From Tabrizicola sp. (GTDB lineage Bacteria; Pseudomonadota; Alphaproteobacteria; Rhodobacterales; Rhodobacteraceae): a DNA stretch of 64,000 bases. Of this stretch, positions 23,214-60,424 are shown piece after piece (the first letter of the stretch is position 1; every line of letters starts with the position of its first letter). The translations under genes and the position numbers were made by a program. The notes under the pieces are model-generated. The model did not search any database and had not been told where the DNA came from. It saw only the letters and a program-made list of their open reading frames with translations. The stretch covers positions 1 through 64,000 of the forward strand of contig JAEULQ010000060.1 of assembly GCA_016792685.1 (NCBI GenBank). Direction: 5' to 3'.

Positions 23214-23438
23214 GGCCCGCGCCCTCCCTCGGGCGGGCGCCCCAACGGCGGGCGTAGGCCCTTTATGGCGCCACCCCTCCTCCCGCAGTTCGGGTGACCA
23301 CCGCTACAGAGCGCCCTCCCGGGGGGTGATGAGCGAAGAGACAATCCTCCAGTGGAGGATTTCCGCGAAGAACGCCCGGCCCGTGGCCGGGCAGTGGGGA
23401 GGGCGCGGCCCGGCGGGCTTCGCCCTTGATTCCGGGCC
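23214..23438 (+). repeat. Dispersed structured element, copy 1 (with internal insertion)
   Basis: First of three copies of a long inverted-repeat element (others at 31141-31297 and 60265-60424). The left arm contains CGCGCCCTCCC and the right arm GGGAGGGCGCG. The core words CTTTATGG and CAGTTCGGGTGAC and the end GGCGGGCTTCGCCC...CCGGGCC are shared with copy 2. Between GCGCCCTCCCGGGGGG and the right arm there is an extra stretch of about 65-70 bases (about 23327-23395) absent from the other copies, which itself contains hairpins (ATCCTCCAGTGGAGGAT and CCCGGCCCGTGGCCGGGC). Confidence 0.75.
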
Positions 23439-23439
23439 A

Positions 23440-23522
23440 AGAAGGTCCACGAGAAGCTGAAGATCGACCGCCTCCACGCCGCCGCCATCGAGTGGGGGGC
23501 AAGAGCTCGGCATATGGGGTGT
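23440..23522 (+). pseudogene. Duplicated 3' fragment of terB
   Basis: Bases 23455-23498 are identical to 22927-22970 of terB (44 bases), and similarity extends some 15 bases to the left and 20 to the right. Translated in the matching frame it gives [22 protein letters not shown], close to the TerB C-terminus, then runs on into unrelated sequence. It has no start and no upstream coding part. It lies between dispersed-element copy 1 and the end of the GHKL gene. Confidence 0.85.
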
Positions 23523-23540
23523 GATTGCCTACCTTACTCT

Positions 23541-25505
23541 CTAAGGCGAAAGACCAAGACGCTCAAAGAAGGCAGCATGTCGTGCCTTAGCGCCAGAAAT
23601 GAGTTCGGCGTAGGAGGTCAATTCCATGAATATCTTGAACCCCTCATCCCAACGATAGTACGAGCCTGAACCTGCCCTCTTATAAAAACCACCCAAATAC
23701 TGCATGACCTCTCGGAGCGACTTTGTATCGTCCGCAACAATCTGGCACAGGAACGGCGTTGATTCTTCAATCGTCCTGATCGTCCCGCCGTCAAACTTCG
23801 TAGCAACTCCCGCCTGCCGAAGTTGGCGGACATAATCCTGCGCCTGCTTAAATGGATTGTCCTCCATCGTATAATCATCGCGTTTCGGACGCTTGAACTC
23901 AATAATCGTTACTGGCTCAGCACCCGCACCTTTCTCAAAGCCAAGACCCAGATCAAAGAACGTGATGTCGGGTCGCCGCGCATCGTCAATTGGCGCCTGC
24001 GCCTTGAGTTGCTTATCTGAGTTGAAATATGAATAGAACGCCAAGCGATCATCAACAATCCAAAGGTTATGATCCTCATAGTCTAGTTCGTCCTTGGTCG
24101 AACGAAGCGGGCACACCAATTCGTGCACTGCTCGCTCGTAATGGGACTTCTCACTCTCAACGTCAGAGTACTTACTACGCTCCTCAAATACGTCCAAGAT
24201 CAGCTTTCTCTTATAAACATACTCTGCCAGGGAAGAGAGTGATTCATCCTTCAACTCTGCCACATACTGTTTAGCCTTTTGCTCTATATCGGGGAGACTC
24301 TTCTTCTTTGCTTCTACGAACTCTCTCTTCGCGCGCTTGTACTGCCTGAGCGACAGGCGAGACATCTCAACAAAAATGTCTTCTTCCTTTTGGGTTGACA
24401 AATGTAGCTTCTCGGCAATTTCCTCCGGGCTCTTTGCGATGTTGTAAAAGCGCAAGTGTTCGTTCCTCACTTCGACAATTGTCTGCAACTGCCGCTCTTT
24501 TACTTTCCCAATTTCTTTCTCTAAGAACAAGTGCATCTTCTGGATGCACTCGCGCTTCAAGTCATCAATCACTGAATCATCAAACGAGAAGTCTGTTCGA
24601 GTGTCGTTCACCACTCCATTTAATGCTTCGCCTTCAAGATAGCCAAAGAATGCGAACTTCTCATCTATCGCCTTTAGGCCGATCACCTCGTCCATGTCGT
24701 AGCGTTTCACAGAGCGTCCGTTTGCGCCAAAGAATAGTCCATTTGTGCCCTTCTCATCATCAGAATACTTCTTGGGCACCAGGAAGCAGTGAAATTTGAA
24801 ATCGCAGGGAGAGCCATCAACCAAATATTCGATTGGATAGGTCTTATCTCTCTCAACGTCTGATGAGAATTTGTCGAAGAGGGTTATACTTGATTTGGAG
24901 TCGAACAATGTGATCTTTGGACACCCAATATTTACGAAATAGTTAATGAAGTGCGCTACAGTTCGAACTGCAATTGTGTCCAGCTTCACAGGGATATGGA
25001 GAGAATAAGCAACGCGAAGGGGCGAAAGATTTACGGTCGTACCTGGGTCTGCTGTATCTAATTCCTGTTTCAGATTTGATATCGGCTCATGAGGGTCAGG
25101 TACAAAGTCAAAACTTATCTTCTGAATTCTCCCGTCCTCGAAGTATCGACTAGTTACGGATACTCTGTCGGCGACCTTTAGCCAAAGCAATCGACCGACG
25201 CCCTTTCCGCCAATCTTCACTTTCTTCATCGAGTCGGATTTTCTGAATGAAGTCATGTTGTCGTGGTTCAATCCAACTCCATTGTCGGTAATGACGAACC
25301 CGGTATATCCGCCCTGCTGATTTTCTGTCACCTCAATGTCGATCTTGCCAGAGGTTAGATGGTCAGCGCCGAATCGCTCTTCGATTGCGTGGATAGAGTT
25401 CATCAGTGCTTCAAACATTGGCTGAAGAGTGTTCTTGGGTGATGGCGCAAGGGAGATGTTTGTAATCCGGCCAATCGGATCGGACAGCCAACTGGTTTCT
25501 TTCAT
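23541..25505 (-). CDS. GHKL-type ATPase fused to a PD-(D/E)XK-like nuclease domain; candidate defence protein
   Basis: A 654-residue protein with two recognisable ends. Residues 1-200 are a GHKL (Hsp90/MutL/MORC-type) ATPase: N-box E32...N36 in MFEALMNSIHA, the DNGVGL box at 74-79, and GGKGVG at 99-104. A helical, charged middle part (about 340-470) may be coiled coil. Near the C-terminus the pattern RPD513ITFFD ... IIE536FK538 fits a PD-(D/E)XK nuclease. Fusions and pairings of this kind are known from MORC-like genes linked to restriction systems. The coding sequence is much poorer in GC than its neighbours (about 42% in one sampled stretch), suggesting recent transfer. The ATG at 25505 lacks a strong ribosome-binding site. 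Confidence 0.75.
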   Translation of the reverse strand: MKETSWLSDPIGRITNISLAPSPKNTLQPMFEALMNSIHAIEERFGADHLTSGKIDIEVTENQQGGYTGFVITDNGVGLNHDNMTSFRKSDSMKKVKIGGKGVGRLLWLKVADRVSVTSRYFEDGRIQKISFDFVPDPHEPISNLKQELDTADPGTTVNLSPLRVAYSLHIPVKLDTIAVRTVAHFINYFVNIGCPKITLFDSKSSITLFDKFSSDVERDKTYPIEYLVDGSPCDFKFHCFLVPKKYSDDEKGTNGLFFGANGRSVKRYDMDEVIGLKAIDEKFAFFGYLEGEALNGVVNDTRTDFSFDDSVIDDLKRECIQKMHLFLEKEIGKVKERQLQTIVEVRNEHLRFYNIAKSPEEIAEKLHLSTQKEEDIFVEMSRLSLRQYKRAKREFVEAKKKSLPDIEQKAKQYVAELKDESLSSLAEYVYKRKLILDVFEERSKYSDVESEKSHYERAVHELVCPLRSTKDELDYEDHNLWIVDDRLAFYSYFNSDKQLKAQAPIDDARRPDITFFDLGLGFEKGAGAEPVTIIEFKRPKRDDYTMEDNPFKQAQDYVRQLRQAGVATKFDGGTIRTIEESTPFLCQIVADDTKSLREVMQYLGGFYKRAGSGSYYRWDEGFKIFMELTSYAELISGAKARHAAFFERLGLSP

Positions 25506-25589
25506 TGCGCACTCGTTCTAATGGTGTGATCTTCAGCAATCCTGAGTTAGTTGTAGTAAGCTATGAGGCGAGTTCCAAGCGCAATCTTT

Positions 25590-25690
25590 GTTAACCACCC
25601 CCTTAACAAACCCTTACCGCCCACACCCCTTCCCCAGCAAAATCAACCCCTTAACCCAATCTGTCCACCGTGGACAGCCGCCCTTGCGGC
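25590..25690 (+). repeat. Dispersed repeat with CTGTCCAC-C-GTGGACAG, copy A
   Basis: This non-coding stretch shares a run of features with 31806-31903: a TTAAC-rich, C-rich left part with CGCCCACACCCC, a CCCCTTaAcC segment, the 17-base inverted repeat CTGTCCACCGTGGACAG (here 25661-25677) and then CCCTTGCGGCCCC. It lies just beyond the dacB stop. The function is unknown; the inverted repeat looks like a protein-binding site or a short hairpin. Confidence 0.55.
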
Positions 25691-25695
25691 CCCCG

Positions 25696-27165
25696 TCAGC
25701 CATATGCCCCCGCCCAGCGGCTCACCAGTTGCCCCTGCAGCCGCCGCGCCCGTTTCGTCCAGGAGGAGGACCCCTCCGGCTCCTCCCGCTCCCCCACCGG
25801 CACCGCATCCCGCCGCGCCGGATCGCCCGAGAAGATCGCGAACACCAGCTCCCTGCCCGAGGGCGGCACGATATGCCCCGCCAGCCCCGAGACGAAGTTC
25901 AGCGTCCCCGACTTGGCCAGCACCTTGACCGGCGACCCCTTGATCACCGCCCCCTTGTCATCCTTCATCCCCACGTCCCGCAGGATCGCCTTCAACCCGC
26001 GCTTCTCCCGCTCCGCCTGGACCAGCACCCGCGCCATCCCGGCCGCCGTCACCCGCGACGCGCCCCCCAGCCCCGAATGATCCCGCAGATCGAACGCCAC
26101 CCCGAAGGTCGCCCGCACCCAGTCCGACATCGCCCGCCCCGACGCCTCCAGCCCCGGCAGCCCGGAAGCCGTCAGCCCCACGCATTCCGCCGTCAGGTTG
26201 GTCGAATACCGCAGCATGTCCCGCAGGACCTCCGGCAGCGGCTCGCTCTCCACCCGGCCCAGCTCGCTCCCCGCAGGCAGGGCCTCCACCCGCTCCCCCA
26301 CGTCCAGCCGGATCCCCTGCGCCCGGGCCAGCGTCCGGAAGACCTCGGCCACATAGCGCCCCGGATCGCGGACCGGCAGCCAACGGCTCCCACCCTTGCC
26401 CAGCGCCGAGGCGGCCACCGTCCATTCCTCCACCCGCCCCGGATCATGGGTGAACAAGGGCGCCTCCCGCGCGGCCACCGCCACCCGGACCATGTCGACC
26501 GCGGGCAGGAACCGCTCCCCCCGCGCATCGACCGCGACCTGCCAGTCGCCATTCGCGCGCTTCCACTCGAAATGCACCCGGTTGAAGTTGAGGCAGAGCC
26601 CCGAGATCGCCGCGTTGTAGCCCACGTGAACCGGCTGATCCCCGGCGATCTCTCTCAGCCGCGGCAGCGCGCCCTCCCAGTAAAGGAACCGCCCCGTCGC
26701 GCCCTTCAGCCCGCCAGAGGCCAGCCGCGCCACCAGATCGCCGAGCTGGTCGGTCTGCAAGGTCGGGTCGCCCCCACCGGCGAGCACGATATCGCCCTGC
26801 ACCATCCCGCCCTGCACCGGCCCCGTCGCCAGCACCCGCGTCGCAAAGCGATACCCGGCCCCAAGCTTCTCCAGCGCATAAAGTGATGTCACGGCCTTCG
26901 CCACGCTCGCGGGCGGCAGTGCGAGGTCCGGTTCGCGCGCTTCCAGCATGGCCCCGCTGACCGGGTCCATCAGCACATAGGCGACCGCCCCGCCCAACTT
27001 CGCCGCCGCAATCAGGTCCGAGGTGTCAAGCGGCCCCGCCGCCGGGCGCGCCGCTGCTTTGCCGCCGCGCGCCACCGGGCGGGGCGATGTTTCCATCACT
27101 TCGGCCATCGCCGGGAAGGTCGCCCCGGCCAGAAGCCCGGCCAGCACCATGCGCCGCGAAATCAT
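25696..27165 (-). CDS. dacB: D-alanyl-D-alanine carboxypeptidase/endopeptidase (PBP4 type, S13 family)
   Basis: A periplasmic peptidoglycan enzyme of 489 residues with the three penicillin-binding motifs in order: SVAK (nucleophile S87), STN near residue 310 in YSTNLTAE, and KSG near 425 in VLAKSGTLNFVSG. The N-terminus is an export signal (ISRRMVLAGLLAGATFPAMA) with a twin-arginine look. The ATG at 27165 follows GGAGGTG with good spacing. It probably trims or cleaves muropeptide cross-links. It is divergent from the MarR-GNAT gene. Confidence 0.92.
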   Translation of the reverse strand: MISRRMVLAGLLAGATFPAMAEVMETSPRPVARGGKAAARPAAGPLDTSDLIAAAKLGGAVAYVLMDPVSGAMLEAREPDLALPPASVAKAVTSLYALEKLGAGYRFATRVLATGPVQGGMVQGDIVLAGGGDPTLQTDQLGDLVARLASGGLKGATGRFLYWEGALPRLREIAGDQPVHVGYNAAISGLCLNFNRVHFEWKRANGDWQVAVDARGERFLPAVDMVRVAVAAREAPLFTHDPGRVEEWTVAASALGKGGSRWLPVRDPGRYVAEVFRTLARAQGIRLDVGERVEALPAGSELGRVESEPLPEVLRDMLRYSTNLTAECVGLTASGLPGLEASGRAMSDWVRATFGVAFDLRDHSGLGGASRVTAAGMARVLVQAEREKRGLKAILRDVGMKDDKGAVIKGSPVKVLAKSGTLNFVSGLAGHIVPPSGRELVFAIFSGDPARRDAVPVGEREEPEGSSSWTKRARRLQGQLVSRWAGAYG

Positions 27166-27262
27166 GCGTCCACACCTCCGTTTCCCGGGTGATAGCCCTT
27201 TCCCGGGCGATTCCGCCAGTCCGCGATGCCACCCCCGCTATCGCGCTTGCGTGGAGGAATTG

Positions 27263-27278
27263 TCTGACTATAGTCAGA
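27263..27278. promoter_or_regulatory. Perfect 16-base palindrome, probable MarR operator
   Basis: TCTGACTATAGTCAGA is a perfect palindrome 24 bases before the start of the MarR-GNAT gene, and a further half-site ATCTGACT follows at about 27285-27292. Size and symmetry suit a winged-helix MarR dimer, so autoregulation of the adjacent gene, and perhaps of divergent dacB, is likely (inference). Confidence 0.6.
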
Positions 27279-27302
27279 TGAAATATCTGACTGAGGTCCG
27301 AC

Positions 27303-28181
27303 ATGTACCTTGACCCAATCTCTCGCCTGCGCCGTTTCAACCGCGCCGTCACGCGCGAGGTTGGCGCGCTCGACACCTCGTTCCTCGGGCGCGGTCGTCC
27401 GCTTGGCATGGCGCGCGTCCTGCAGCTTGTCCGGCCCGAAGGCACGGATGTGGCTGTGATCCGCGACCGGCTGGCGCTGGATTCCGGCCTTACCAGCCGC
27501 TTCCTGCGCAGCCTGGAACGCGAGGGGCTGATCGAGACCGAGACCGATCTCGCCGACCGCCGCCGCCGCATCGCCCGGCTGACAGCGAAGGGACAGGCGG
27601 AAATGGCCGCCTACGAAGCCATCGGCTACGACCGCGCCGCCCGGCTTATAGCCAAGGCCGGGACGCGGGCGGACGAGGTCGTCGCTGCCATGGACCTCAT
27701 CGCCACGCTTCTGAACCGCGACCACCTGGAAATTCGCCCCGCCGACCCCGATGCACCCGAGGCGCTTGCCTGTCTGCAAGCCTATTTCGACGAACTCATC
27801 GACCGAGTCCCGGCTGCCACGCCCCAGATGTTCAGCCTGCCAGACCCCGGCGCCGACCGGTACCGCCCGCCTCATGGCCGCTTTTTCATCGCCTGGTCCG
27901 ACGACCTGCCGGTTGGCTGTGTCTCGCTCCGCCCGCTGGATGCCACGACCGCCGAGGTCAAGCGGCTCTGGGTTCACGCCTCTGCCCGTGGCCAGGGCCT
28001 TGCCCGGCGGCTGATGTCCCTGATCGAGGATGAGGCCCGCGCGATGGGCCACCGCTATCTGAAGCTCGACACCAACTCTGTGCTGACCGAGGCTATCACG
28101 CTCTACCGCAACTCGGGCTGGGTCGACATCGAACCCTATACCGACCCGCCGGGTGACACCTGGATGGGCAAGGCGCTTTGA
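27303..28181 (+). CDS. MarR-type transcriptional regulator fused to GNAT acetyltransferase
   Basis: A 292-residue two-domain protein. Residues 1-145 are a MarR-like winged helix (DTSFLGRGRPLGMARVL, the recognition part LDSGLTSRFLRSLEREGLI, and the wing TDLADRRRRIARLT). Residues 150-292 are a GNAT N-acetyltransferase, with the acetyl-CoA loop in ASARGQGLARRL and the family tail YRNSGWVDIEPY. Such fusions are common in actinobacteria and proteobacteria; the acetylated substrate is unknown. GAGG lies 5 bases before the ATG. Confidence 0.9.
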   Translation: MYLDPISRLRRFNRAVTREVGALDTSFLGRGRPLGMARVLQLVRPEGTDVAVIRDRLALDSGLTSRFLRSLEREGLIETETDLADRRRRIARLTAKGQAEMAAYEAIGYDRAARLIAKAGTRADEVVAAMDLIATLLNRDHLEIRPADPDAPEALACLQAYFDELIDRVPAATPQMFSLPDPGADRYRPPHGRFFIAWSDDLPVGCVSLRPLDATTAEVKRLWVHASARGQGLARRLMSLIEDEARAMGHRYLKLDTNSVLTEAITLYRNSGWVDIEPYTDPPGDTWMGKAL

Positions 28182-28235
28182 CGAACGGGGGGCACGCCTC
28201 CCCGCCGAAAGCAAGGGGTTAGACCCTCCGTCAGG

Positions 28236-28841
28236 TCAACCACGCCCCGACTTCCAGCCCCCACGCGCCCGGATTTCGGTCGACGAAGCCCCGTTCAGCG
28301 GCAGGTTCACGAAACACCAGACCGGAGGCTTCCGCCCCCGCAGGTTCTCGCCCCGGTTCACCCGATGCACCCGAAAGGCCCGTGCGGCCACCGACAGCCG
28401 TGCCTGAACCCCGGCGCCAGGCCGCGCCAGCACACCAACGGCAACCGACCGCAGGATGTCCCGCCAGCGGCCCCAGCGGTGGAACTGCACCAGATTGTCC
28501 GCCCCCATCAGCCAGACGAAGGTCACCCCCGGATAGATCGCCTTCAGCCGGTCGATCGTGTCCGCCGTGGCCCGCGTGCCGAGGCTCTCCTCCAGCGCCG
28601 TGATCCGCACTCTGGGATGCCCCATCACCGCCTTCGCGCGCCGCAGGCGGTCTGCCATCGGCGCGGGCTGCCGGGCCTTCAGCGGATTGGCCGGGGTCAC
28701 CAGCCACCAGACCTGATCCAGCCCCATCCGTTTCAGGGCTTCGCGCGTGATATGCACATGCCCCTCATGCGCCGGATCGAACGATCCGCCGAGCAGCCCC
28801 ACGACCATGCCCCTGGTCGCCACCGGAAACCCCTGCCGCAT
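28236..28841 (-). CDS. nadD: Nicotinate-nucleotide adenylyltransferase
   Basis: NadD adenylylates nicotinate mononucleotide in NAD synthesis. The nucleotidyl-transferase motif [14 protein letters not shown] (HxGH type) is near the N-terminus, [10 protein letters not shown] lies in the middle, and the late SSTEIR motif is present. The second ATG (28841) was chosen because GGAGAGG lies upstream; the first ATG (28853) would add four residues. Length (201) fits the family. A rsfS gene, often next to nadD, is not seen here. Confidence 0.93.
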
Positions 28842-28989
28842 CGGCCTCTCCATCCCTTCGGGCCAATTGACCCGAAGCTGACCGCCATGACAATGCCCGA
28901 CCTCCCACTGCGGCCCGCCGTTGCCCTTGACCGGAACAATCGCTACATAGCCGCCAACACCTCATCCGCCGACCCGTCAGGAGCGCCCC

Positions 28990-30645
28990 ATGGCCAGCTA
29001 TCAATACGTCTATCACATGGAGAACGTCTCCAAGACCTACCCCGGCGGGAAAACCTGCTTTGAGAACATCCACCTGAACTTCCTGCCCGGCGTGAAGATC
29101 GGCGTCGTCGGTGTCAACGGCGCGGGGAAATCCACGCTGCTGAAGATCATGGCCGGGATGGACAAGGACTTCAAAGGCGAGGCCTGGGCTGCCAAGGGTG
29201 CCAAGGTCGGCTACCTCGCGCAGGAACCCTACCTCGACCCCGCGCTGACGGCGAAGGAAAACGTCATGCTGGGCGTTGCCGCGCAGCAGGCGATCCTCGA
29301 CCGCTACAACGAACTTGCCATGAACTACTCGGACGAGACCGCGGACGAGATGGCCCAGCTCCAGGACCAGATCGACGCTGGCAATCTGTGGGAACTGGAA
29401 GCCACCGTCGGGGTCGCGATGGATGCGCTCCGCTGCCCGCCGGACGATGCCGATGTCACCACCCTGTCGGGCGGGGAACGCCGCCGCGTCGCGCTCTGCA
29501 AGCTCCTGCTTGAAAAGCCCGACATGCTGCTTCTCGACGAACCGACCAACCACCTTGACGCGGAATCGATCGCCTGGCTGCAGAAGCACCTGATCGACTA
29601 CAAGGGCACGATCCTGATCGTCACCCACGACCGCTATTTCCTGGACGACATCACCGGCTGGATCCTCGAACTCGACCGCGGCCGCGGCATTCCCTACGAG
29701 GGCAACTACTCCGCCTGGCTTGACCAGAAGGCCAAGCGCATGGCGCAAGAGGCCCGCGAGGACAAGTCCAAGCAGAAAGCGCTGGAAAAGGAACTGGAGT
29801 GGATCCGCTCCGGTGCCAAGGCGCGTCAGGCCAAGGGCAAGGCCCGTCTCAACCGCTATAACGAGATGGCGAGCCAGACCGTCTCCGAACGCGCCTCGAC
29901 CGCCCAGATCATCATCCCGAACGGCGAACGCCTGGGCAACAAGGTGATCGAAGTCGAGGGCCTGAAGAAACACATGGGCGACAAGCTCCTGATCGAGGAC
30001 CTGTCCTTTGTCGTCCCCCCCGGCGCCATCGTCGGCGTCATCGGCCCGAACGGTGCAGGGAAATCCACCCTCTTCCGCATGATCACCGGGCAAGAGCCGC
30101 CCGATGAGGGCACGATCAAACTGGGCGAGACGGTCAAGCTCGCCTATGTCGACCAGTCCCGCGACGCTTTGGATCCGAACAAGAACGTCTGGGAAGAAAT
30201 CACCGGCGGGGCCGAGGTCATCCACCTGGGCGACATGCAGATGAACTCCCGCGTCTATACCGGGGCCTTCAACTTCAAGGGCACCGACCAGCAGAAGAAG
30301 GTCGGGTTGCTCTCCGGCGGTGAGCGCAACCGCGTCCACATGGCCAAGCTACTGAAATCAGGCGGCAATGTCCTCCTCCTCGACGAACCGACCAACGACC
30401 TAGACGTGGAAACGCTACAGGCGCTGGAAGCCGCCATCGAAGACTTCGCCGGCTGCGCGATCATCATCAGCCACGACCGCTTCTTCCTCGACCGGCTCTG
30501 CACCCATATCCTGGCGTTCGAAGGCGACGCGCATGTGGAATGGTTCGAGGGCAACTTCCAGGCCTACGAGGAAGACAAGGTCCGGAGACTGGGTCCGGAT
30601 GCGCTGGAGCCGAAGCGGGTGAAGTACAAGCGGTTTGCGCGGTAG
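28990..30645 (+). CDS. ettA: Energy-dependent translational throttle protein EttA (ABC-F)
   Basis: A 551-residue ribosome-associated ABC-F ATPase that gates the first steps of elongation according to ATP/ADP in other bacteria. It has two ABC domains without membrane segments: Walker A GVNGAGKS, signature LSGGERRR, Walker B LLLDEPTNHLD; then GPNGAGKS, LSGGERNR and LLLDEPTNDLD. The linker between them is the charged, helical P-site tRNA-interaction motif (about residues 240-310). Length and both domain ends match EttA closely. It is transcribed alone. Confidence 0.95.
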   Translation: MASYQYVYHMENVSKTYPGGKTCFENIHLNFLPGVKIGVVGVNGAGKSTLLKIMAGMDKDFKGEAWAAKGAKVGYLAQEPYLDPALTAKENVMLGVAAQQAILDRYNELAMNYSDETADEMAQLQDQIDAGNLWELEATVGVAMDALRCPPDDADVTTLSGGERRRVALCKLLLEKPDMLLLDEPTNHLDAESIAWLQKHLIDYKGTILIVTHDRYFLDDITGWILELDRGRGIPYEGNYSAWLDQKAKRMAQEAREDKSKQKALEKELEWIRSGAKARQAKGKARLNRYNEMASQTVSERASTAQIIIPNGERLGNKVIEVEGLKKHMGDKLLIEDLSFVVPPGAIVGVIGPNGAGKSTLFRMITGQEPPDEGTIKLGETVKLAYVDQSRDALDPNKNVWEEITGGAEVIHLGDMQMNSRVYTGAFNFKGTDQQKKVGLLSGGERNRVHMAKLLKSGGNVLLLDEPTNDLDVETLQALEAAIEDFAGCAIIISHDRFFLDRLCTHILAFEGDAHVEWFEGNFQAYEEDKVRRLGPDALEPKRVKYKRFAR

Positions 30646-30687
30646 GAATACCGCCGCTAGGATCGGGCCGAAATCAGGAGGATCTCC

Positions 30688-31050
30688 ATGAAACTCGGCT
30701 CGGTTCTGACGCTTGTCTCTGGCCTCGCACTCTTAGGGTGTAGCTATCCGCTGGAAGGGGGTTGGGCCGTCACCGCGAACTGCCCCGCCGACAGCGCATT
30801 CGGCGCACTGGTGATCCGGGCCAAAGCAACGGCGACAGAGGTGCAGACGAACGAGTTCGTCGGCGAGATCACCAATGACCTTGGACAGCGCGGGCAGTTC
30901 CGGGCATCGCTACAGAACAACCTGCTTCTGACCGAGACAAACTGGGACGGTCTGCCGCCGACGACCTCTCGACTGACGCTCGACCGCAGTTCTGGCTCGT
31001 TCACGGGTGTCGACTCCATGGGCTGCTCACTGATTGTTGTCCGCCCCTGA
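30688..31050 (+). CDS. Small putative lipoprotein of unknown function
   Basis: A 120-residue protein with a lipoprotein signal peptide: a short basic start, a hydrophobic core and a lipobox LALLGC, making Cys18 the probable lipidated residue. The mature part has two further cysteines that could pair, and a beta-rich pattern. AGGAGG lies upstream of the ATG. It follows ettA by 42 bases but is probably not functionally related. No family recognised. Confidence 0.75.
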   Translation: MKLGSVLTLVSGLALLGCSYPLEGGWAVTANCPADSAFGALVIRAKATATEVQTNEFVGEITNDLGQRGQFRASLQNNLLLTETNWDGLPPTTSRLTLDRSSGSFTGVDSMGCSLIVVRP

Positions 31051-31103
31051 TCCTGACGCCCCTTGAGAGCAGGTCTACTGCCACCAACATGGCTCCCGCT
31101 ACC

Positions 31104-31128
31104 GTAGGTTGGGCAATCTGCCCACAAC
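31104..31128 (+). repeat. Single GTAG-headed REP-like hairpin
   Basis: GTAG followed by GTTGGGC, a 5-base loop and GCCCACAAC forms an imperfect hairpin of the same layout as the four REPs at 23003-23164. It lies just left of dispersed-element copy 2, as those four lie just left of copy 1. Confidence 0.55.
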
Positions 31129-31140
31129 CCGTCGCAACAA

Positions 31141-31297
31141 GGGCCGCGCCCTCCATCGGGCGGGCGCAACAACGGTCGGTGGAGGCGCTTTATGGTGCAA
31201 CCCCTCCCACCGCAGTTCGGGTGACTGACGCGGCAAAGCGCCCTCCCGGGGGGAGGGAGGGCGCGGCCCGGCGGGCTTACGCCCTTGATCCCGGGCC
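31141..31297 (+). repeat. Dispersed structured element, copy 2
   Basis: The most regular copy. The left arm GGGCCGCGCCCTCC (31141-31154) is exactly complementary to GGAGGGCGCGGCCC (31256-31269). Inside, GGCGCTTT (31184-31191) is complementary to AAAGCGCC (31235-31242). The right end is a small hairpin GGGC-TTAC-GCCC enclosed by GGCCCGG/CCGGGCC, and the latter shares bases with the right arm of the long stem, so the two pairings exclude each other. It is not coding. Confidence 0.75.
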
Positions 31298-31383
31298 ACA
31301 GTGCCAATAGCTTCAACCTGCGGCTTAAGATCAACTTCCGCGAGATCGCACATCAGTTGTCGTTGTATGAATTGGAAACCCTG

Positions 31384-31903: not shown

Positions 31904-31929
31904 CACTCCTCTGCGAACCGGAGGCCGCC

Positions 31930-52570: not shown

Positions 52571-52647
52571 GGCACCGGGTCGCCCCCGGGGTGCCTCTTC
52601 ACTGGCCACGCCTCGACAACCGCCCCCCGGCCTGCCATGCTGTCGCC

Positions 52648-53016
52648 ATGAAACTCCCGTCCCTCAACGTTCTTGGCCAGACGCTGGAGCCCTGCTCGAC
52701 CGATCCGGTCACCGGCTTCTTCCGCGACGGCTGCTGCAACACCGGCCCGATGGACCGGGGCCTGCACACCGTTTGCGCCCTGATGACTGCCGAGTTTCTG
52801 GCGCTGTCGAAATACCTCGGGAACGATTTGTCTACCCCGCGCCCGGAATACGGCTTTCAGGGTCTGAAGCCCGGCGATCAGTGGTGCCTTTGTGCTTCCC
52901 GCTTCCTGCAGGCCCATGACGAGGGCGCAGCGCCTAAGGTCCGCCTGGCCGCCACCCATCAGGCCACGCTCGCCATCGTGCCCCTCGACGTGCTGCGGCA
53001 ATACGCCACCGACTGA
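52648..53016 (+). CDS. DUF2237 family protein
   Basis: A 122-residue protein matching the DUF2237 pattern: NVLGQTLEPCSTDPVTGFFRDGCC near the N-terminus, then HTVCALMTAEFLALSKYLGNDL and the C-terminal GDQWCLCASRFLQA. The cysteines suggest metal binding, but no activity is known. It follows the FAD monooxygenase by 77 bases in the same direction. Confidence 0.87.
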   Translation: MKLPSLNVLGQTLEPCSTDPVTGFFRDGCCNTGPMDRGLHTVCALMTAEFLALSKYLGNDLSTPRPEYGFQGLKPGDQWCLCASRFLQAHDEGAAPKVRLAATHQATLAIVPLDVLRQYATD

Positions 53017-53072
53017 CCGACGGCTCATCGATGGACTTCGTCCACGCCTCGCAGGATCATCGCGGGAGGCGC

Positions 53073-53489
53073 ATGCAATGCGACGACGAGCATCCGATGA
53101 ACCCGCCCCGCTTCGACATCACCGAAAGTCAGATCGCCGCTGTCGTGGCAACCTTTTACGGCTGTATCCGCGAACATCCCGGCCTCGGACCCGTCTTCGC
53201 CGCCCATGTCACCGACTGGCCTGCGCACGAAGAAAAGATCGCCCGCTTCTGGCGCAATGCGATCCTGCACGAGCGGAGTTATGACGGAAACCCCATGGCC
53301 GTCCACCGCGCGGCAGCCAATGTGAAGCCACCGATGTTCGCCGTCTGGCTCGGGCTTTTCGACAGCGTTCTCAGGCTGGAATTGCCGCCCGAGACTGCGA
53401 CCCAGTGGTCGGCCCTTGCCCATCGTATCGGGCGCGGCCTGATGTTCGGGCTGCTAGGGGCGGACGGCGCGCCGCCCTCACTTCGCTGA
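53073..53489 (+). CDS. Group III truncated haemoglobin
   Basis: A short globin of 138 residues that binds haem in the cytoplasm. Group III features are VVATFYGCIREHPGLGPVFAAH and W-x(4)-KIARFWRNAIL with the proximal-side region MAVHRAAANVKPPMFAVWLGLF (histidine in VHRA). ATG 53073 was chosen because GGGAGG lies just upstream; ATG 53097 (MNPPRFDI) would match the usual domain start. Its last 12 bases overlap the converging LuxR-type gene. Likely roles are O2/NO binding (family knowledge). Confidence 0.88.
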   Translation: MQCDDEHPMNPPRFDITESQIAAVVATFYGCIREHPGLGPVFAAHVTDWPAHEEKIARFWRNAILHERSYDGNPMAVHRAAANVKPPMFAVWLGLFDSVLRLELPPETATQWSALAHRIGRGLMFGLLGADGAPPSLR

Positions 53490-54035
53490 GACGGCCGACT
53501 GCGTCACCTGATCCGGCATCGGCCGCACCGCCCCGTCATCCCGCATTAGGTCCTCGATGAAGAGGCTCAGTAGCTGCGACCGTCCGCTCACACCCGCCTT
53601 GCGATAGATCGCATTGGTCTGGGCCTTGACCGTCCCCTCGCTGGTCGAACGCAGAACCGCAATCTCGGCCGTCGACATGCCCTTGATCGCGAATAGCGCC
53701 ACATCCTTTTCCGAAGGCGTCAGCCCCCATTCCGCAAACCGCTCCTGCAAGAGGTCGGCAAAGGCCCCCGAGGCCCGGCGCAGCTGTTCTTCCGCGCGAT
53801 GCCGTTCCTTGAGAGCCCGCCGCAGCATGAAGCCGCCGACCACCACGCCAAGGACCAGACCGAGCGAGGCGCCGATCTCGATCATCTCGCGCATTTCCCA
53901 GCTGATCGGCGTTGTCCGGATTCCCAGCACCGACGACAGGACATCGGACACGAAAAAGACGGCGCACAGCGCTTGGATCACGAAGATCGCAAGAAAGGGT
54001 AGCGCGCGTTTCAAACCAGGCCCCGACGGCGACAC
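53478..54035 (-). CDS. Membrane-anchored LuxR-type transcriptional regulator
   Basis: A 185-residue protein with two N-terminal transmembrane helices (about residues 11-37 and 52-72), a short charged helix, and a C-terminal LuxR helix-turn-helix (about 105-165) with LTPSEKDVALFAIKGMSTAEIA and the recognition part SEGTVKAQTNAIYRKAGVS. There is no receiver or autoinducer domain, so it would have to bind DNA from the membrane, perhaps sensing through its short periplasmic loop. It starts 6 bases after a polyaspartate protein gene and is the third gene of that operon. Confidence 0.85.
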   Translation of the reverse strand: MSPSGPGLKRALPFLAIFVIQALCAVFFVSDVLSSVLGIRTTPISWEMREMIEIGASLGLVLGVVVGGFMLRRALKERHRAEEQLRRASGAFADLLQERFAEWGLTPSEKDVALFAIKGMSTAEIAVLRSTSEGTVKAQTNAIYRKAGVSGRSQLLSLFIEDLMRDDGAVRPMPDQVTQSAVSAK

Positions 54036-54041
54036 TTCCGG

Positions 54042-54485
<444 letters not shown>

Positions 54486-54573
54486 TGGGACACCCCGACC
54501 CTTACCCAAGGAACTATGTTCCATGCCGAAGGCCCCGGCAAGACCGGGGCCCCTCTGTCTTCATAGCGTGCGT

Positions 54574-55035
<462 letters not shown>

Positions 55036-55247
55036 CAGAAGGTCTCCTACAGGTTGCGGTTCCGGTTCACCCCGGGGCATCCGGACCCCTGTGGCGAAAC
55101 ATGGGACAATGAAGCTGCACTCCTCCCGACCTGGCCATTGCACTGCAGTTTACCCCCGGCCACCTATGCCCTCGGTTGGCAGCACTAAACCCCAGTTTAC
55201 GGCCCTGCTGCAGTTGGGATGCCAAATGGCGGCCCGTCTGGCAAAGC

Positions 55248-55277
55248 AAAAAGGCCCGCAGCTTGGCGCTGCGGGCC
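55248..55277 (-). terminator. Rho-independent terminator of trpB
   Basis: On the minus strand a perfect 10-pair stem GGCCCGCAGC/GCTGCGGGCC with a 5-base loop is followed directly by TTTTT. It begins 28 bases after the trpB stop codon and is the clearest terminator in the window. Confidence 0.9.
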
Positions 55278-55304
55278 CCGTTTCGATCAAAGGTTTATGC
55301 CGTT

Positions 55305-56537
55305 TCAGACCTTCATCTGTACGCCAAGGTGTTTGGCGACCGTGAAGATGTCCTTGTCGCCCCGTCCGCACATGTTCATCACGATGATCTTGTCGCGCCC
55401 CATGGTCGGCGCCAGCTTCATCACATGGGCCAAAGCATGGCTCGGTTCGAGCGCGGGGATGATTCCCTCCAGCCGGCAGCACAGCTGGAAGGCCTCCAGC
55501 GCCTCGGCATCGGTGATCGAGACATATTCCGCCCGGCCCACGTCATGCAGCCAGGAATGTTCAGGCCCGATCCCGGGGTAATCCAGGCCCGCGCTGATCG
55601 AGAAGCCTTCCAGGATCTGCCCGTCCGCGTCCTGCAGAAGGTAGGTCCGGTTCCCATGCAGCACGCCAGGACGCCCGCCGGTGAGGGAGGCGCAATGCTC
55701 CATCCGCTCGTCCACGCCCTTGCCGCCCGCTTCCACACCCACGATCCGCACCGAAGGATCGTCGAGGAAGGGGAAGAAAAGCCCCATCGCGTTCGACCCG
55801 CCCCCGATCGCTGCCACCACGGCATCGGGAAGACGGCCTTCGCCCTCCTGCTCGGCCAGCTGCCAGCGTACTTCCTTGCCGATGATCGACTGGAAATCGC
55901 GGACCATCGCCGGATAGGGATGCGGCCCGGCCACCGTTCCGATGCAATAGAACGTGTCACGGACATTGGTCACCCAATCCCGCAGCGCGTCGTTCATCGC
56001 ATCCTTCAGCGTGCCGCGACCGCTGGTCACGGGGATCACCTCAGCCCCCAGAAGCTTCATCCGGAAAACGTTCGGCGCCTGACGTTCCACGTCATGCGCG
56101 CCCATGTAAACCACGCATTTCAGCCCGAACTTGGCACAGACCGTGGCCGTGGCCACCCCATGCTGGCCCGCACCGGTCTCGGCAATGATCCGGGTCTTGC
56201 CCATGCGGCGGGCTAGGATGATCTGTCCCAGCACGTTGTTGATCTTGTGCGCGCCGGTATGGTTCAGCTCGTCGCGCTTCATATAGACCTTGGCGCCGCC
56301 CAGATGCTCGGTCAGCCGGGGCGCGAAATAGAGGGGCGAGGGACGCCCGACATAGTGCTTCCACAGGTCGTCCATCTCGGCCCAGAATGTCGGGTCGGTC
56401 TTGGCGTGGTTGTAGCGCTCTTCCAGCTCCAGGATCAGCGGCATCAGCGTCTCGGAGACAAACCGCCCGCCGAATAGCCCGAACCGGCCCTGCTCGTCCG
56501 GCCCCGTCATGAAGCTGTTCAACCCGTCTTCGGCCAT
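55305..56537 (-). CDS. trpB: Tryptophan synthase beta chain
   Basis: TrpB joins indole and serine to tryptophan in a complex with TrpA. The 410-residue protein has the start [17 protein letters not shown], the pyridoxal-phosphate lysine in GAHKINN, the E of ETGAGQHG, and the phosphate-binding GGGSNAMG. The ATG at 56537 gives the standard N-terminus; a longer frame runs upstream through a repeat. It lies 261 bases after trpF, a gap filled by repeats. The trpA gene is not in the window. Confidence 0.96.
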
Positions 56538-56607
56538 GGCATACCCCCGTTGTTCCTCTTGGGATGTAGCGCCAATGCCCGCCCGGGGAAAGGGGGGCGC
56601 TGCCCCC

Positions 56608-56760
56608 GTCTCCGCATGGGCGGAGACTCCCCCGGGATATTTCCGCAAAGATGAAAGCGCTGTCCGATTGTCTTTCATCTTTGTCCAAATATCCCCGCCG
56701 GAGGCTAGCCCGAGGAGGCGCGCTCTTCGCGCGCTGACGAGACAAAGTGCTTGCGGCGCA
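56608..56760. repeat. Inverted and dispersed repeats between trpF and trpB
   Basis: Three structures follow one another: a perfect hairpin GTCTCCGC-ATGG-GCGGAGAC (56608-56627); an inverted repeat of about 24 bases, GGGATATTT...AAAGATGAAAG at 56634-56657 against CTTTCATCTTT...AAATATCCCC at 56672-56696; and copy 2 of the CCCCGCCGGAGGC repeat (56687-56760; first copy at 51258-51327). All lie in the leader of trpB. Confidence 0.65.
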
Positions 56761-56798
56761 AGCCGCTCCATTCAATAGCCGCCCCGAGCCCCCGGGCG

Positions 56799-57467
56799 CT
56801 ACCGCAGGATCGGCACCCCGCCCTTCACACCCTTCGCCGCCTCGACAAAGGCCGCGATCTTCGCCGCATCCTTCACACCGGGCGCGCTTTCAACGCCGCT
56901 CGCGACATCGACCTGCCGCGCCCCGGTGCGCTGGATGGCCTGTCCCACATTCTCGGGGGTCAGCCCTCCGGCCAGCATCCAGGGTTTCAGCCACTTGCGC
57001 CCGACCAGAAGTCTCCAGTCGAAGGTCAGCCCGTTGCCGCCGGGCAGGACGGCACCCTTCGGCGCCTTGGCATCGACCAGGATCTGATCCGCCACCAGCT
57101 GGTAATCGAGGAGTGGCGCCAGGTCTGCTTCCTCTGCCACGCCAATAACTTTCATCACCGGCAGCCCGTAGCGCGCCTTCACTTCAGCCACCCGGGCCGG
57201 GGTTTCGTGGCCGTGAAGCTGCAGCATGTCGAGCGGTACCCCGCCCACGATCGCATCCAGCGTCCCGTCATCGGCATCGACCACCAGCGCTACCTTGCAA
57301 AGGCCTTCCGGCGCGGACAGGGCCAGTGCGTGGGCAGCTTCGGGGGGCACATAGCGCGGGGATTTCGGAAAGAAGTTGAACCCGGCATAGGCGGCCCCCG
57401 CCTGGGCCACCGCCGCGACATCGTCGGGCGTCTTCAGCCCGCAGATCTTGACCCGGACCTCGCGCAT
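56799..57467 (-). CDS. trpF: Phosphoribosylanthranilate isomerase
   Basis: TrpF performs the Amadori rearrangement in tryptophan synthesis. The 222-residue TIM barrel has the N-terminal VKICGLK with the catalytic cysteine, [12 protein letters not shown], the LQLHGHE strand, DAKAPKG, and the phosphate loop AGGLTPENV. The start at 57467 overlaps the stop of the lapA-like gene by one base (TGATG). The frame continues upstream but outside the family. The operon order rpsA-ihfB-lapA-trpF-trpB is usual for this bacterial group. Confidence 0.95.
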
Positions 57468-57820
57468 CAACGCTTGTCCAAAAGCGCCAGAACCTCGTCC
57501 TTCGGCGGGACCGAAGTCGAATCCCGCAGCACGGCCAGCTCCCGCTCCAGCCGCGCAACTTCCCGCGATTTCCGGCTGGCCGTCGCGCGGTGCCCGTGCT
57601 CGCGGAACCATTCCCAGACAAAGCCGATCAGCACCCCCGCGATGATCCCGCCGAAGATGATCAGGAACAGCGGCAGTTCCATCGCCCAGGTCAGCCCGGT
57701 CAGCGCGGCCAGGTCCTCGGGCAAAAGCCGGACGACGACAGGCGCGCGGTTGGCCAAAGCAACCGTCAGCAGGCCAATGCCCACAAGGCCCAGGAATATC
57801 AGTCTCAGATATCGGATCAT
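57467..57820 (-). CDS. LapA domain protein (DUF1049)
   Basis: A small inner-membrane protein of 117 residues with two hairpin helices ([18 protein letters not shown] and [18 protein letters not shown]) and a cytoplasmic helix ([18 protein letters not shown]), the LapA layout. In E. coli LapA works with LapB in control of lipopolysaccharide synthesis; here only the domain is seen. The ATG at 57820 is preferred over a GTG four codons earlier. It is coupled to trpF. Confidence 0.85.
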
Positions 57821-57890
57821 TCGCGTCGGCACCCCAGGGTTCAGGGGCCAATATCGGCCCGATCCGGGCCGGGCGCAAGGCGAAGCGCGG

Positions 57891-58172
57891 TTACTTGCCG
57901 TTCAGCCGGTCGCGCAGAAGCTTGCCGGTCTTGAAGAACGGCACCTTCTTGTCGTCCACCTTGACCGACTCGCCCGTCCGGGGATTGCGGCCAACCCGCG
58001 CATCCCGGGCCTTTACCGAGAAGGCGCCGAAGCCCCTCAGCTCCACCCGGTCGCCCTTGGCCAGGGCTTCGATGATCTCTTCGAAGACCGTGTTCACGAT
58101 CCGCTCGACATGTCTCTGCGTCAAATGCGGGTTTTCATCCGCGATCTTCTGGATCAGTTCCGACCGGATCAT
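57891..58172 (-). CDS. ihfB: Integration host factor subunit beta
   Basis: A 93-residue HU/IHF-fold DNA-bending protein. The DNA-intercalating arm has GRNPRTGE, and the body starts [17 protein letters not shown]. The IHF-beta form is supported by its place after rpsA. It probably pairs with an alpha subunit coded elsewhere. The ATG at 58172 follows GGGGGGAT. Confidence 0.93.
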
Positions 58173-58281
58173 CAAATCCCCCCTGTGGTTCAGCCCCTGG
58201 CAGGCGACCGCCACGCTATTGTTCTGCCACGACTATAGCGGCAGGATTTGTGTTCGGGCAAACAAAAACCGGGACTTGCCC

Positions 58282-58312
58282 AAAAGGAAAAGGCCCCGCT
58301 TGTGGCGGGGCC
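58282..58312 (-). terminator. Rho-independent terminator downstream of rpsA
   Basis: On the minus strand GGCCCCGC/GCGGGGCC (8 pairs, 5-base loop) is followed by TTTTCCTTTT. It starts 35 bases after the rpsA stop, so ihfB probably has its own promoter or receives read-through. Confidence 0.8.
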
Positions 58313-58346
58313 TCTCCGTTCAATCGCTGGTAAGCGAGCCGCTGGC

Positions 58347-60026
58347 TTAGCTGCGGTCCTTCAGGGCCGCGCCAAGGATGTCGCCCAGCGAGGCGCCCGA
58401 ATCGGACGAGCCATACTGCTCGACCGCTTCCTTCTCTTCGGCGATCTCGCGCGCCTTGATCGACAGGCCCAGCTTGCGGGTCTTCGGGTCGATGTTGGTC
58501 ACGCGGACGTCGACGTGGTCGCCCACCTGGAAGCGCTCGGGACGCTGGTCGGCGCGGTCGCGCGACAGGTCCGAACGGCGGATGAAGGACTTCTGGTTGT
58601 TGTACTCAACCTCGATCCCGCCTTCCTCGATCGCAGTCACGGTGACGGTGATGATCCCGCCCCGCTTCACGCCATCAACGGCATCGGTGAAGGTGTCGTC
58701 GCCCAGAGCCTTGATCGAGAGCGAGATACGCTCCTTCTCAACATCCACTTCGGTGACGGCGGCCTTGACCGTGTCGCCCTTGCGGTAGTTCTGGATGGCT
58801 TCTTCGCCGCGCTGGTCCCACGACAGGTCGGACAGGTGAACCATCCCGTCGATGTCGTTGTCGAGGCCGACGAACAGACCGAATTCGGTGATGTTCTTGA
58901 CTTCGCCCTCGATCGCCGAGCCCACCGGATGGGTTTCGGCAAAGACTTCCCACGGGTTGCGCTGGGTCTGCTTCAGGCCAAGCGAAACACGACGCTTGGC
59001 GCTGTCGATTTCCAGCACCATGACGTCCACTTCCTGCGAGGTGGAGACGATCTTGCCGGGGTGCACGTTCTTCTTGGTCCAGGACATTTCCGAGACGTGA
59101 ACCAGGCCCTCAACCCCCGCTTCCAGCTCCACGAAGGCGCCGTAATCGGTGATGTTGGTGACGCGGCCTTTGTGGACCGTGCCGATCGCATACATCTTCT
59201 CGACCGCATCCCACGGATCGGACTGGAGCTGCTTCATGCCCAGGCTGATGCGGTGGGTGTCCTTGTTGATCTTGATGACCTGGACCTTGACGGTCTCGCC
59301 GATCGACAGGATCTCCGACGGATGGTTGACGCGGCGCCAGGCCATGTCGGTAACGTGCAGCAGGCCGTCAACGCCGCCCAGGTCAACGAACGCACCGTAT
59401 TCGGTGATGTTCTTGACCACGCCGTCGACGACTTGACCTTCGGTCAGGTTGCCGATGACTTCGGCGCGCTGTTCGGCGCGGCTTTCTTCCAGGATCGCGC
59501 GACGCGAGACAACGATGTTGCCGCGACGACGGTCCATCTTCAGGATCTGGAACGGCTGCTTCATGCCCATCAGCGGGCCAGCGTCGCGCACGGGGCGCAC
59601 GTCAACCTGCGAACCAGGAAGGAACGCCACAGCGCCCCCGAGGTCGACCGTGAAGCCGCCCTTGACCCGACCGAAGATCGCGCCATCGACGCGCTGCTCG
59701 GCGGCATAGGCCTTCTCGAGCCGGTCCCAAGCCTCTTCGCGGCGGGCCTTCTCGCGGCTGATCTGAGCTTCGCCGCGGGCATTTTCCACGCGGTCCAGAT
59801 AGACCTCGACAGTGTCGCCCACGTTGATGTTGGGCTGCTCGCCGGGGTTCGCGAATTCCTTAAGGTCGATGCGGCCTTCCATCTTGTAGCCGACATCGAT
59901 GATGGCCTGGCCCGCCTCGATGGCGATGACCTTGCCTTTGACGACAGTGCCCTCTTCGGGGGTGTCGATCTCGAAGCTTTCCTTCAGAAGGGCTTCGAAG
60001 TCTTCCATGGTTGCTTTAGCGCACAT
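58347..60026 (-). CDS. rpsA: 30S ribosomal protein S1
   Basis: S1 brings messages to the ribosome. The 559-residue protein shows six S1-type RNA-binding repeats; the best preserved carry GRVTNITDYGAFVEL, GEVKNITEFGLFVGL and GVVKNITEYGAFVDL. Length matches alphaproteobacterial S1. The ATG at 60026 (MCAKATMEDFE) follows AAGGAAA; the next ATG would be 60008. In many proteobacteria cmk is its direct upstream neighbour; here a KAP NTPase and an M19 dipeptidase lie between. Confidence 0.96.
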   Translation of the reverse strand: MCAKATMEDFEALLKESFEIDTPEEGTVVKGKVIAIEAGQAIIDVGYKMEGRIDLKEFANPGEQPNINVGDTVEVYLDRVENARGEAQISREKARREEAWDRLEKAYAAEQRVDGAIFGRVKGGFTVDLGGAVAFLPGSQVDVRPVRDAGPLMGMKQPFQILKMDRRRGNIVVSRRAILEESRAEQRAEVIGNLTEGQVVDGVVKNITEYGAFVDLGGVDGLLHVTDMAWRRVNHPSEILSIGETVKVQVIKINKDTHRISLGMKQLQSDPWDAVEKMYAIGTVHKGRVTNITDYGAFVELEAGVEGLVHVSEMSWTKKNVHPGKIVSTSQEVDVMVLEIDSAKRRVSLGLKQTQRNPWEVFAETHPVGSAIEGEVKNITEFGLFVGLDNDIDGMVHLSDLSWDQRGEEAIQNYRKGDTVKAAVTEVDVEKERISLSIKALGDDTFTDAVDGVKRGGIITVTVTAIEEGGIEVEYNNQKSFIRRSDLSRDRADQRPERFQVGDHVDVRVTNIDPKTRKLGLSIKAREIAEEKEAVEQYGSSDSGASLGDILGAALKDRS

Positions 60027-60264
60027 ATAGATCAGTTTCCTTTGCTTGGTTGTCACTGGCCATGCGGTTGGCTCCGCCGGTCTTGCTCGCGTCCTGAACG
60101 AAAAAAAGCGCGGGCCTCCGGAAATCCGGCGCCAGCGAGTCCCTTCAGGATGCGGCGCCTATAGCCGCAATGGCCCAGCGAGGCAAGGGAAAGCCGGTGG
60201 CTGTTGGACCGCGAGACAGAATGCCGCCCCTTGTGACAGAACAGTCCTCCCAAACTTCGACATA

Positions 60265-60424
60265 GGGCAGCGCCCGACCGCCGGGTGGGCGAGCACCGGC
60301 GGGTTTAGGCGCTTTATGGTTCCAGATACTTCCCCCGAAGTTCTGCTGGCGACGTTGCAAAGCGCCCGCCCGAGGGGGCGGTCGGGCGCTGCCCGGCGGC
60401 GCGTTACCGCGCCTTGTTCCGGGC
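60265..60424 (+). repeat. Dispersed structured element, copy 3
   Basis: Third copy of the element. The left arm GGGCAGCGCCCGACCGCC (60265-60282) is exactly complementary to 60377-60394 over 18 bases. Compared with copy 2 the arm sequence differs, but both sides have changed together. The core AGGCGCTTTATGGT and GCAAAGCGCCC are conserved. The right-end hairpin GGCGCG-TTAC-CGCGCC keeps the loop while changing the stem, and CTGCCCGG/CCGGGCAG replaces GGCCCGG/CCGGGCC. It lies between the KAP gene stop and the rpsA start. Confidence 0.75.

What the first reader, a model, noticed from the sequence alone, without database searches (positions are those of the whole stretch)
23214..60424. Three-copy dispersed element with stems that covary between copies and two mutually exclusive pairings
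Copies lie at 23214-23438, 31141-31297 and 60265-60424, all in the same orientation. Directly visible: in copy 2 the left arm GGGCCGCGCCCTCC pairs with GGAGGGCGCGGCCC; in copy 3 the arm is GGGCAGCGCCCGACCGCC and its partner has changed to match over 18 bases. The partner segment also pairs with the right end (GGCCCGG/CCGGGCC in copy 2, TGCCCGG/CCGGGCA in copy 3), so one position has changed in all three segments together (C-G-C to A-T-A). A small hairpin keeps its TTAC loop while its stem changes. This supports selection for a structure that can switch between two folds. I do not recognise the family; it may be a non-autonomous mobile element or a structured RNA.
Basis: seen in the sequence. 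Interest (0 to 1): 0.78.

Follow-up and report, generated by a model that had tools for sequence, protein, structure and literature searches.

The report
Hairpin-doublet repeat family of Rhodobacteraceae
The three matching stretches are copies of a roughly 160-letter folded DNA repeat, not found in the RNA-family library or papers searched, that sits between genes in many Rhodobacteraceae bacteria, dozens of times in some, and looks like a small hitch-hiking mobile element with two competing folds.

Summary
Confirmed: three same-orientation copies. They belong to a dispersed ~160-nt family: 6 copies in this draft genome, hits in 28 of 32 genomes of the genus and 174 of 295 of the family; in a class-wide draw of 190 only two genomes hit, both of this family. 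Full searches gave 10-88 hits per genome in 8 selected carriers. No Rfam match. Copies lie between genes, often convergent, rarely divergent. Anatomy: two inverted hairpins (a:b, c:d) around a near-constant-length variable spacer with TTTAT, then a 3' hairpin (B:C around H3). The arms can also form one long stem. Pairs unique to each fold covary, but few beat a tree-based null. Strand evidence is mixed: arms a and b favour the + strand, c:d does not. The closest published layout is the REPIN, with a stable hairpin and a 'clover' fold; but 154 of 174 carriers show no RAYT hit and GTAG/CGTC tags are missing. Best reading: a REPIN/MITE-like non-autonomous element, mobiliser unknown. No clean empty site was found. 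The 'constant TTAC loop' is refuted.

The parts
23214..23439 (+). copy 1 (C-type) of the element, with an extra module at the tip of the c:d hairpin
   Evidence: covariance-model hit, E 4.9e-16
23327..23395 (+). ~69-nt module at the tip of the c:d hairpin (ends approximate); same module in the G000:C68:21153-21379 copy and, 78% alike, at G000:C98:19606-19667
31141..31298 (+). copy 2 (C-type), complete, 158 nt
   Evidence: E 1.6e-30
60265..60426 (+). copy 3 (A-type), complete
   Evidence: E 2.1e-21
31141..31155 (+). copy 2, segment A/a (5' arm): pairs with d/B in fold I, with b in fold II
31162..31167 (+). copy 2, arm b (GGGCGC): pairs with a (fold II) or c (fold I)
31189..31193 (+). copy 2, TTTAT in the spacer, the only conserved spacer motif (120 of 126 copies)
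31238..31247 (+). copy 2, arm c (GCGCCCTCCC)
31256..31264 (+). copy 2, arm d (GGAGGGCGC)
31265..31271 (+). copy 2, segment B (GGCCCGG): pairs with A (fold I) or C (fold II)
31273..31284 (+). copy 2, small hairpin H3 between B and C, best-supported local covariation
31291..31297 (+). copy 2, segment C (CCGGGCC), 3' end

Best explanation
A Rhodobacteraceae family of non-autonomous, REPIN/MITE-like intergenic repeats. Shown: two inverted GC-rich hairpins (a:b, c:d) flank a spacer of nearly constant length and variable sequence with TTTAT; a 3' hairpin (B:C, enclosing H3) follows; the same arms can form one long stem (a:d with b:c); copies resemble others of their own genome most and lie mostly next to gene 3' ends. 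Inferred: a single strand, probably the +, is recognised as DNA in the multi-hairpin fold by an enzyme acting in trans and is copied or inserted, while the more stable long stem is the resting form. The enzyme is unknown and is mostly not a detectable RAYT/Y1 transposase. Copies survive where they spare promoters.
For: 10-88 hits in 8 genomes chosen for many hits; 72 places of the 88-hit genome are listed. Nearest relative lies in the own genome for 68 of 81 labelled copies, 4.0 expected. Five distinct G138 copies at unrelated places are 93-99% identical. 0 of 135 hits overlap a called gene by >80 nt; convergent gaps 28 of 66 with element, 14 of 114 without; divergent 3 of 66 against 54 of 114. 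Covariation unique to fold I (13-120, 12-121), to fold II (106-117) and in H3 (138-147) at E<=0.05. c:d base 98.1%, B:C 97.8% Watson-Crick in 126 copies; 97.5% and 96.4% in the 79 found without a 3' pattern. Arm a: C-to-T opposite G 31.4, G-to-A opposite C 10.0; arms a+b against spacer p=1.6e-4. Same layout in published REPINs (PMC3116915, passages).
Against: No clean empty site or target duplication was found. No mobilising gene was found: 99 of 112 5'-half hits have a 3' half within 200 nt, and no orphan halves clearly enclose a gene. PF01797 has no hit in 8 of 9 selected genomes or in 154 of 174 carriers. The strand signal is absent or reversed elsewhere: C-to-T/G-to-A ratios 0.68 (c), 0.90 (d/B), 0.95 (H3), 1.25 (C), and c:d base plus tip hold 8 G-T but 23 A-C cells. 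Similarity within genomes could come from gene conversion. G-T pairs also fit RNA.
Confidence: 0.5

Rival explanations
1. Transcribed RNA element: the repeat acts in mRNA 3' regions or as a small RNA (terminator, stabiliser or processing site, as proposed for ERIC), folding first into local hairpins that may rearrange into the long stem.
For: Wobble pattern in arms a and b; position at gene 3' ends and between convergent genes; near-perfect local hairpins c:d and B:C.
Against: 24 of 65 copies with two called neighbours have no upstream gene in sense; tandem contexts are 13 sense, 21 antisense. No conserved promoter or T-run was seen by eye in the flanks. No Rfam family.
Confidence: 0.24
2. Classical TIR transposon derivative (MITE): the arms are terminal inverted repeats read as double-stranded DNA by a DDE transposase; a and d co-vary because one protein reads both ends.
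For: Outer inverted repeats flank the core in G138 and G239, different in each; c:d shows no + strand wobble bias.
Against: Outer repeats were not seen in the window genus (by eye); no target duplication seen by eye in seven G138 copies. Does not predict the C-to-T excess in arms a and b nor conserved B:C and H3.
Confidence: 0.15
3. Mutational artefact: quasi-palindrome correction by template switching keeps arms complementary without selection on structure.
For: Four arms change in concert (columns 11, 22, 105, 122), as such correction would give.
Against: Closely spaced a:b is less perfect (89.0% in six core pairs) than c:d base (97.5%) in the copies found without a pattern; transition rates in c and d are about tenfold below the spacer, which suggests purifying selection.
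Confidence: 0.08
4. A regulatory two-state RNA switch controlling adjacent genes.
For: Mutually exclusive pairings, each with unique covariation.
Against: Both orientations and rarely in divergent, promoter-bearing gaps; long stem more stable in 123 of 123 copies by 12.5 kcal/mol on average. Shared neighbour genes were not tested systematically.
Confidence: 0.03

Closest known systems
REPIN / BIME (REP doublets, RAYT-associated)
   Same: Two inverted hairpins around a length-conserved variable spacer; extragenic; many copies; a stable long hairpin versus a less stable 'clover' (PMC3116915, passages; figure S11 known from its legend only).
   Different: About 160 nt with an extra 3' B:C/H3 hairpin; GTAG near the 5' boundary in only 3 of 191 copies; no RAYT hit in 154 of 174 carriers.
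CGTC-tagged REPs of alpha-proteobacteria
   Same: Palindromic repeats, mostly alpha-proteobacterial, without a dedicated transposase (PMC3733652, passages).
   Different: Stems of 8-9 bp and a CGTC tag; here CGTC is near the 5' boundary in 4 of 191 copies and the unit is far longer. The words Rhodobacter, Roseobacter, Paracoccus and Ruegeria do not occur in that paper's main text.
ERIC, Correia/NEMIS, YPAL (100-200 bp MITE-like repeats)
   Same: Size, intergenic place, long stem-loops, many copies (PMC2229807, passages).
   Different: Other hosts; target duplications, reported for Correia, ERIC, RUP and YPAL in that review, were not found here.
CIR repeats of Caulobacter/Brucella
   Same: Alpha-proteobacterial intergenic repeats with stem-loops in both halves and a GANTC motif.
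   Different: GANTC in our 3' loop is kept in 68 of 101 copies found without a 3' pattern and is missing in window copies 2 and 3.

Membership tests
REPIN (RAYT-dependent) | two inverted hairpins around a spacer of conserved length | tested here: met
REPIN (RAYT-dependent) | RAYT (Y1 transposase) gene in the genome | tested here: not met
   PF01797 hits in 20 of 174 carriers and 10 of 121 non-carriers (overlap counted by hand, assuming that both draws are the same 295 genomes)
REPIN (RAYT-dependent) | GTAG tag at the end of the palindrome | tested here: not met
   GTAG in -12..+6 of the 5' boundary in 3 of 191 copies, CTAC in 4; the 3' boundary was not scanned
REPIN (RAYT-dependent) | RAYT gene flanked by the repeat | not tested
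   RAYT loci of carriers were not inspected
CGTC REP | CGTC tag and 8-9 bp stem | tested here: not met
   CGTC in -12..+6 of the 5' boundary in 4 of 191; 10-bp c:d and up to 15-bp a:d stems
MITE with TIR and TSD | target-site duplication | tested here: inconclusive
   none seen by eye in seven G138 copies; no clean empty site
Known structured RNA family (Rfam 15) | score above gathering threshold | tested here: not met
   0 of 4227 families in the window; low-threshold scans of copies 2 and 3 gave 1 and 10 matches, all below their family's cut-off
CIR | conserved GANTC sites | tested here: not met
   68 of 101 copies

The most novel reading that the evidence does not exclude
A family-wide mobile element of which one strand is selected to hold two mutually exclusive folds: the multi-hairpin fold is the substrate of an unidentified single-strand recombinase unrelated to RAYTs, the long stem its self-inhibited state, and the optional modules at the c:d tip are captured cargo.
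Probability: 0.18. Interest if true: 0.75.

Novelty: new variant of a known kind. Interest (0 to 1): 0.5.

Why it matters
Hits occur in 174 of 295 Rhodobacteraceae genomes sampled, yet no Rfam family and no listed paper of ten searches describes it. It would be a REPIN-like population that persists mostly without a recognisable RAYT, which bears on how such repeats spread and survive. High copy numbers and a usable covariance model make the mobiliser and the two-fold question testable in culturable strains. It should also be masked when intergenic regions of this family are mined for RNAs.

Tried and rejected
Rfam at gathering (window) and low threshold (copies 2 and 3): no family. Coding: all six frames contain stops in the set of copies. 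HEARO/IscB RNA, attC, Helitron and hammerhead were considered from memory only; apart from the Rfam scans no call tested them. CcrM/GANTC: rejected, 68 of 101 copies; an earlier count was biased because the named loci had been found with a pattern containing GATTC. RAYT dependence: not supported. Outer flanks as a within-copy covarying stem: own and cross pairing scores are close in all five sets; the named-locus set has a slight excess (own 18.3, cross 16.8; 8 of 78 above the 95% level). Autonomous long form: none clear in 86 loci. The stretch between the paired copies in L070 and L098 holds priA-like and fsa-like genes (names recalled from the translations).

Empty sites: downstream of the gene left of copy 2, 30 loci from 32 matching genomes were fetched; 7 have an element or fragment within the stretch held, three stretches are cut at contig edges, and the others do not align well enough to show a junction. 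The gene right of copy 3 has only short matches in 4 other genomes of the genus. Pseudosulfitobacter plasmids and a genus mate of G138 gave shared, rearranged or replaced sites, none clean. Phages: no match with copy 2. Plasmids: with a Sulfitobacter-type query 129 of 152 records cover 80% or more; the 20 listed are Pseudosulfitobacter.

Limits: the covariation null was my own script modelled on R-scape, 60 simulated alignments. Two couplings that are not clean pairs (117-128, 16-117) reach E 0.03-0.05, so some shared-ancestry signal remains. On the 26-copy genus alignment fold I has 4 and fold II 2 pairs changed on both sides, no more than shuffled controls, though cells changed on both sides exceed all 500 shuffles. 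Of the 126 copies 47 come from loci found with a pattern fixed on parts of d/B, loop and C, which inflates conservation there; one search repeats the pair counts on the other 79, not the null test. Covariance-model hit counts include some places read on both strands (seen). Neighbour genes were called with my own codon-bias script.

Full report
Observation. Copy 1 carries about 69 extra nt at one hairpin tip. The own genome (G000, a draft of 3.58 Mb in 136 contigs, 88.9% complete) holds six copies, three of them in this window.

Distribution. A covariance model (R1) built from 26 copies of the genus has hits in 28 of 32 genomes of the genus and in 174 of 295 genomes of the family, nearly one per genus. 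In a class-wide draw of 190 it hits 2, both of this family; a third listed family member has none, and 168 of the misses are not listed by name. In some searches only 10-15 candidates per genome were scored under strict filters, so misses and copy counts are approximate. Eight genomes chosen for many hits give 88, 71, 48, 37, 36, 21, 10 and 10 hits; for the first, 72 places are listed.

Anatomy. Across 126 non-redundant copies the order is A/a, b, spacer, c, d/B, H3, C. The spacer differs between copies except for TTTAT, present in 120 of 126 and at 48 or 49 nt from the 5' end in 111. Fold I pairs A/a with d/B and b with c. Fold II pairs a with b, c with d, and B with C around H3. In some lineages H3 is replaced by another loop while B:C is kept. 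Fold I is more stable in 123 of 123 copies that could be folded both ways, by 12.5 kcal/mol on average; copy 2 differs by only 3.3.

Covariation. With a tree-aware null (60 simulations, own script), pairs 13-120 and 138-147 exceed every simulated value, 106-117 has E=0.017 and 12-121 E=0.05. 12-121 and 13-120 exist only in fold I, 106-117 only in fold II. The triple 2/131/159 is kept (2-131: 110 G-C, 12 C-G; 131-159: 110 C-G, 13 G-C) but is not significant alone (E=1.4 and 0.37). Couplings that are not clean pairs reach E 0.03-0.05 (117-128, 16-117), so the null is not perfect. On the genus alignment alone, 4 pairs of fold I and 2 of fold II are changed on both sides, no more than in shuffles, although the number of such cells and the covariation score exceed all 500 shuffles. 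In 126 copies c:d base, B:C and the outer four pairs of H3 are about 98% Watson-Crick, A/a:d/B 90.8% and b:c 88.1%. In the 79 copies found without a 3' pattern the values are 97.5, 96.4, 97.4, 91.1 and, without two weak end pairs, 96.6%.

Strand. In arm a, C-to-T opposite G was inferred 31.4 times and G-to-A opposite C 10.0 times (averages of 10 reconstructions). The C-to-T/G-to-A rate ratio is 0.73-0.78 in the spacer and 2.0 and 5.4 in arms a and b; Fisher test of arms a+b against spacer p=1.6e-4 (rounded events on one tree, not independent). Against this, the ratio is 0.68 in c, 0.90 in d/B, 0.95 in H3 and 1.25 in C, and c:d base plus tip hold 8 G-T but 23 A-C cells. So the 5' arms point to pairing of the + strand and the 3' hairpins do not. 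The strand claim is a lead, not a result.

Context. In 80 named loci of up to 8 kb, gaps holding an element are 35 tandem, 28 convergent and 3 divergent; gaps of 150-800 nt without one are 46, 14 and 54 (gene calls by my own script). None of 135 hits (both strands counted) overlaps a called gene by more than 80 nt. Of 88 copies examined 65 have both neighbours called; their tandem contexts are 13 sense and 21 antisense. In the window, neighbours with a Pfam match are a TerB-domain gene (copy 1), a gene with ABC_tran and ABC_tran_Xtn domains (copy 2; EttA-like is recalled), and an S1-domain gene and a KAP NTPase gene (copy 3); three of the seven reading frames scanned had no match.

Dynamics. 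For 81 labelled copies with a sibling in the set, the nearest relative is from the same genome in 68 (4.0 expected); copies of the window genus were not labelled and so not counted. Five distinct G138 copies are 93-99% identical at unrelated sites, within a longer repeated unit bearing outer inverted repeats. On Pseudosulfitobacter plasmids copies differ between strains by internal deletion and by nested or neighbouring second copies, while several others are shared by both strains; no clean empty site was found. A copy pair beside priA-like/fsa-like genes is seen directly in L070 and L098 and suggested by spacing in other species, so some copies are old. Amplification or homogenisation within lineages is well supported; transposition is inferred.

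Comparison. REPINs share the layout, and their authors proposed a stable hairpin and a less stable 'clover' recognised in an IS200-like way (PMC3116915; passages read). Membership fails on RAYT and tag: PF01797 is found in 30 of 295 genomes, 20 of them carriers, against 154 carriers without a hit. CGTC-tagged alpha-proteobacterial REPs likewise lack a dedicated transposase (PMC3733652; passages) but have short stems and a tag missing here. ERIC, NEMIS, YPAL and CIR were compared through passages of a review (PMC2229807). Two structured-RNA papers were checked by word search only (PMC8632094; PMC2864571); the Rhodobacterales motifs in the passages shown are tied to cco genes, cysS or metK. Passages of PMC6006769 on Y1-type nucleases were also seen. 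Ten full-text searches listed no description of this element; three of them listed only part of their matches, and the library lacks most subscription papers, so this is weak evidence of novelty.

Verdict. A real, family-wide and, as far as searched, undescribed repeat that is laid out like a REPIN/MITE and fails two tests of a RAYT-dependent REPIN. The two-fold idea is supported but not proved; the mobiliser, the strand and any RNA are open.

Noticed in passing
A2 copies of the window genus; window regions near 23150 and 31100: 20 of 26 copies have a GTAGG[GT]-type REP-like sequence within 100 nt upstream, only 2 of 26 downstream; other sets 19 and 14 of 165. The own draft genome has no PF01797 hit.
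   Followed up: partly
G000:C98:19606-19667 (L274): The apical module of copy 1 recurs (78% alike) in another GC-rich hairpin context, with its stem changed on both sides.
   Followed up: partly
L060, L053, L087, L104, L054, L081, L098: At least three kinds of optional module occupy the same c:d tip in different lineages; two of them look alike in layout.
   Followed up: no
L195 1501-2010 (G317): Three copies in tandem about 180 nt apart, two matching only model positions 1-129.
   Followed up: no
G000:C68:21153-25155, L070, L098: A pair of outward-pointing copies flanks priA-like/fsa-like genes in L070 and L098; similar spacing in other species of the genus.
   Followed up: partly
G138 copies (L178, L192, L201, L209-L212): A longer repeated unit with outer inverted repeats surrounds the core; in G239 the outer repeats differ.
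   Followed up: partly
L099, L108, L112, L113: Mini-copies of 65-73 nt that lack the spacer, consistent with deletion between the similar arms a and c.
   Followed up: no
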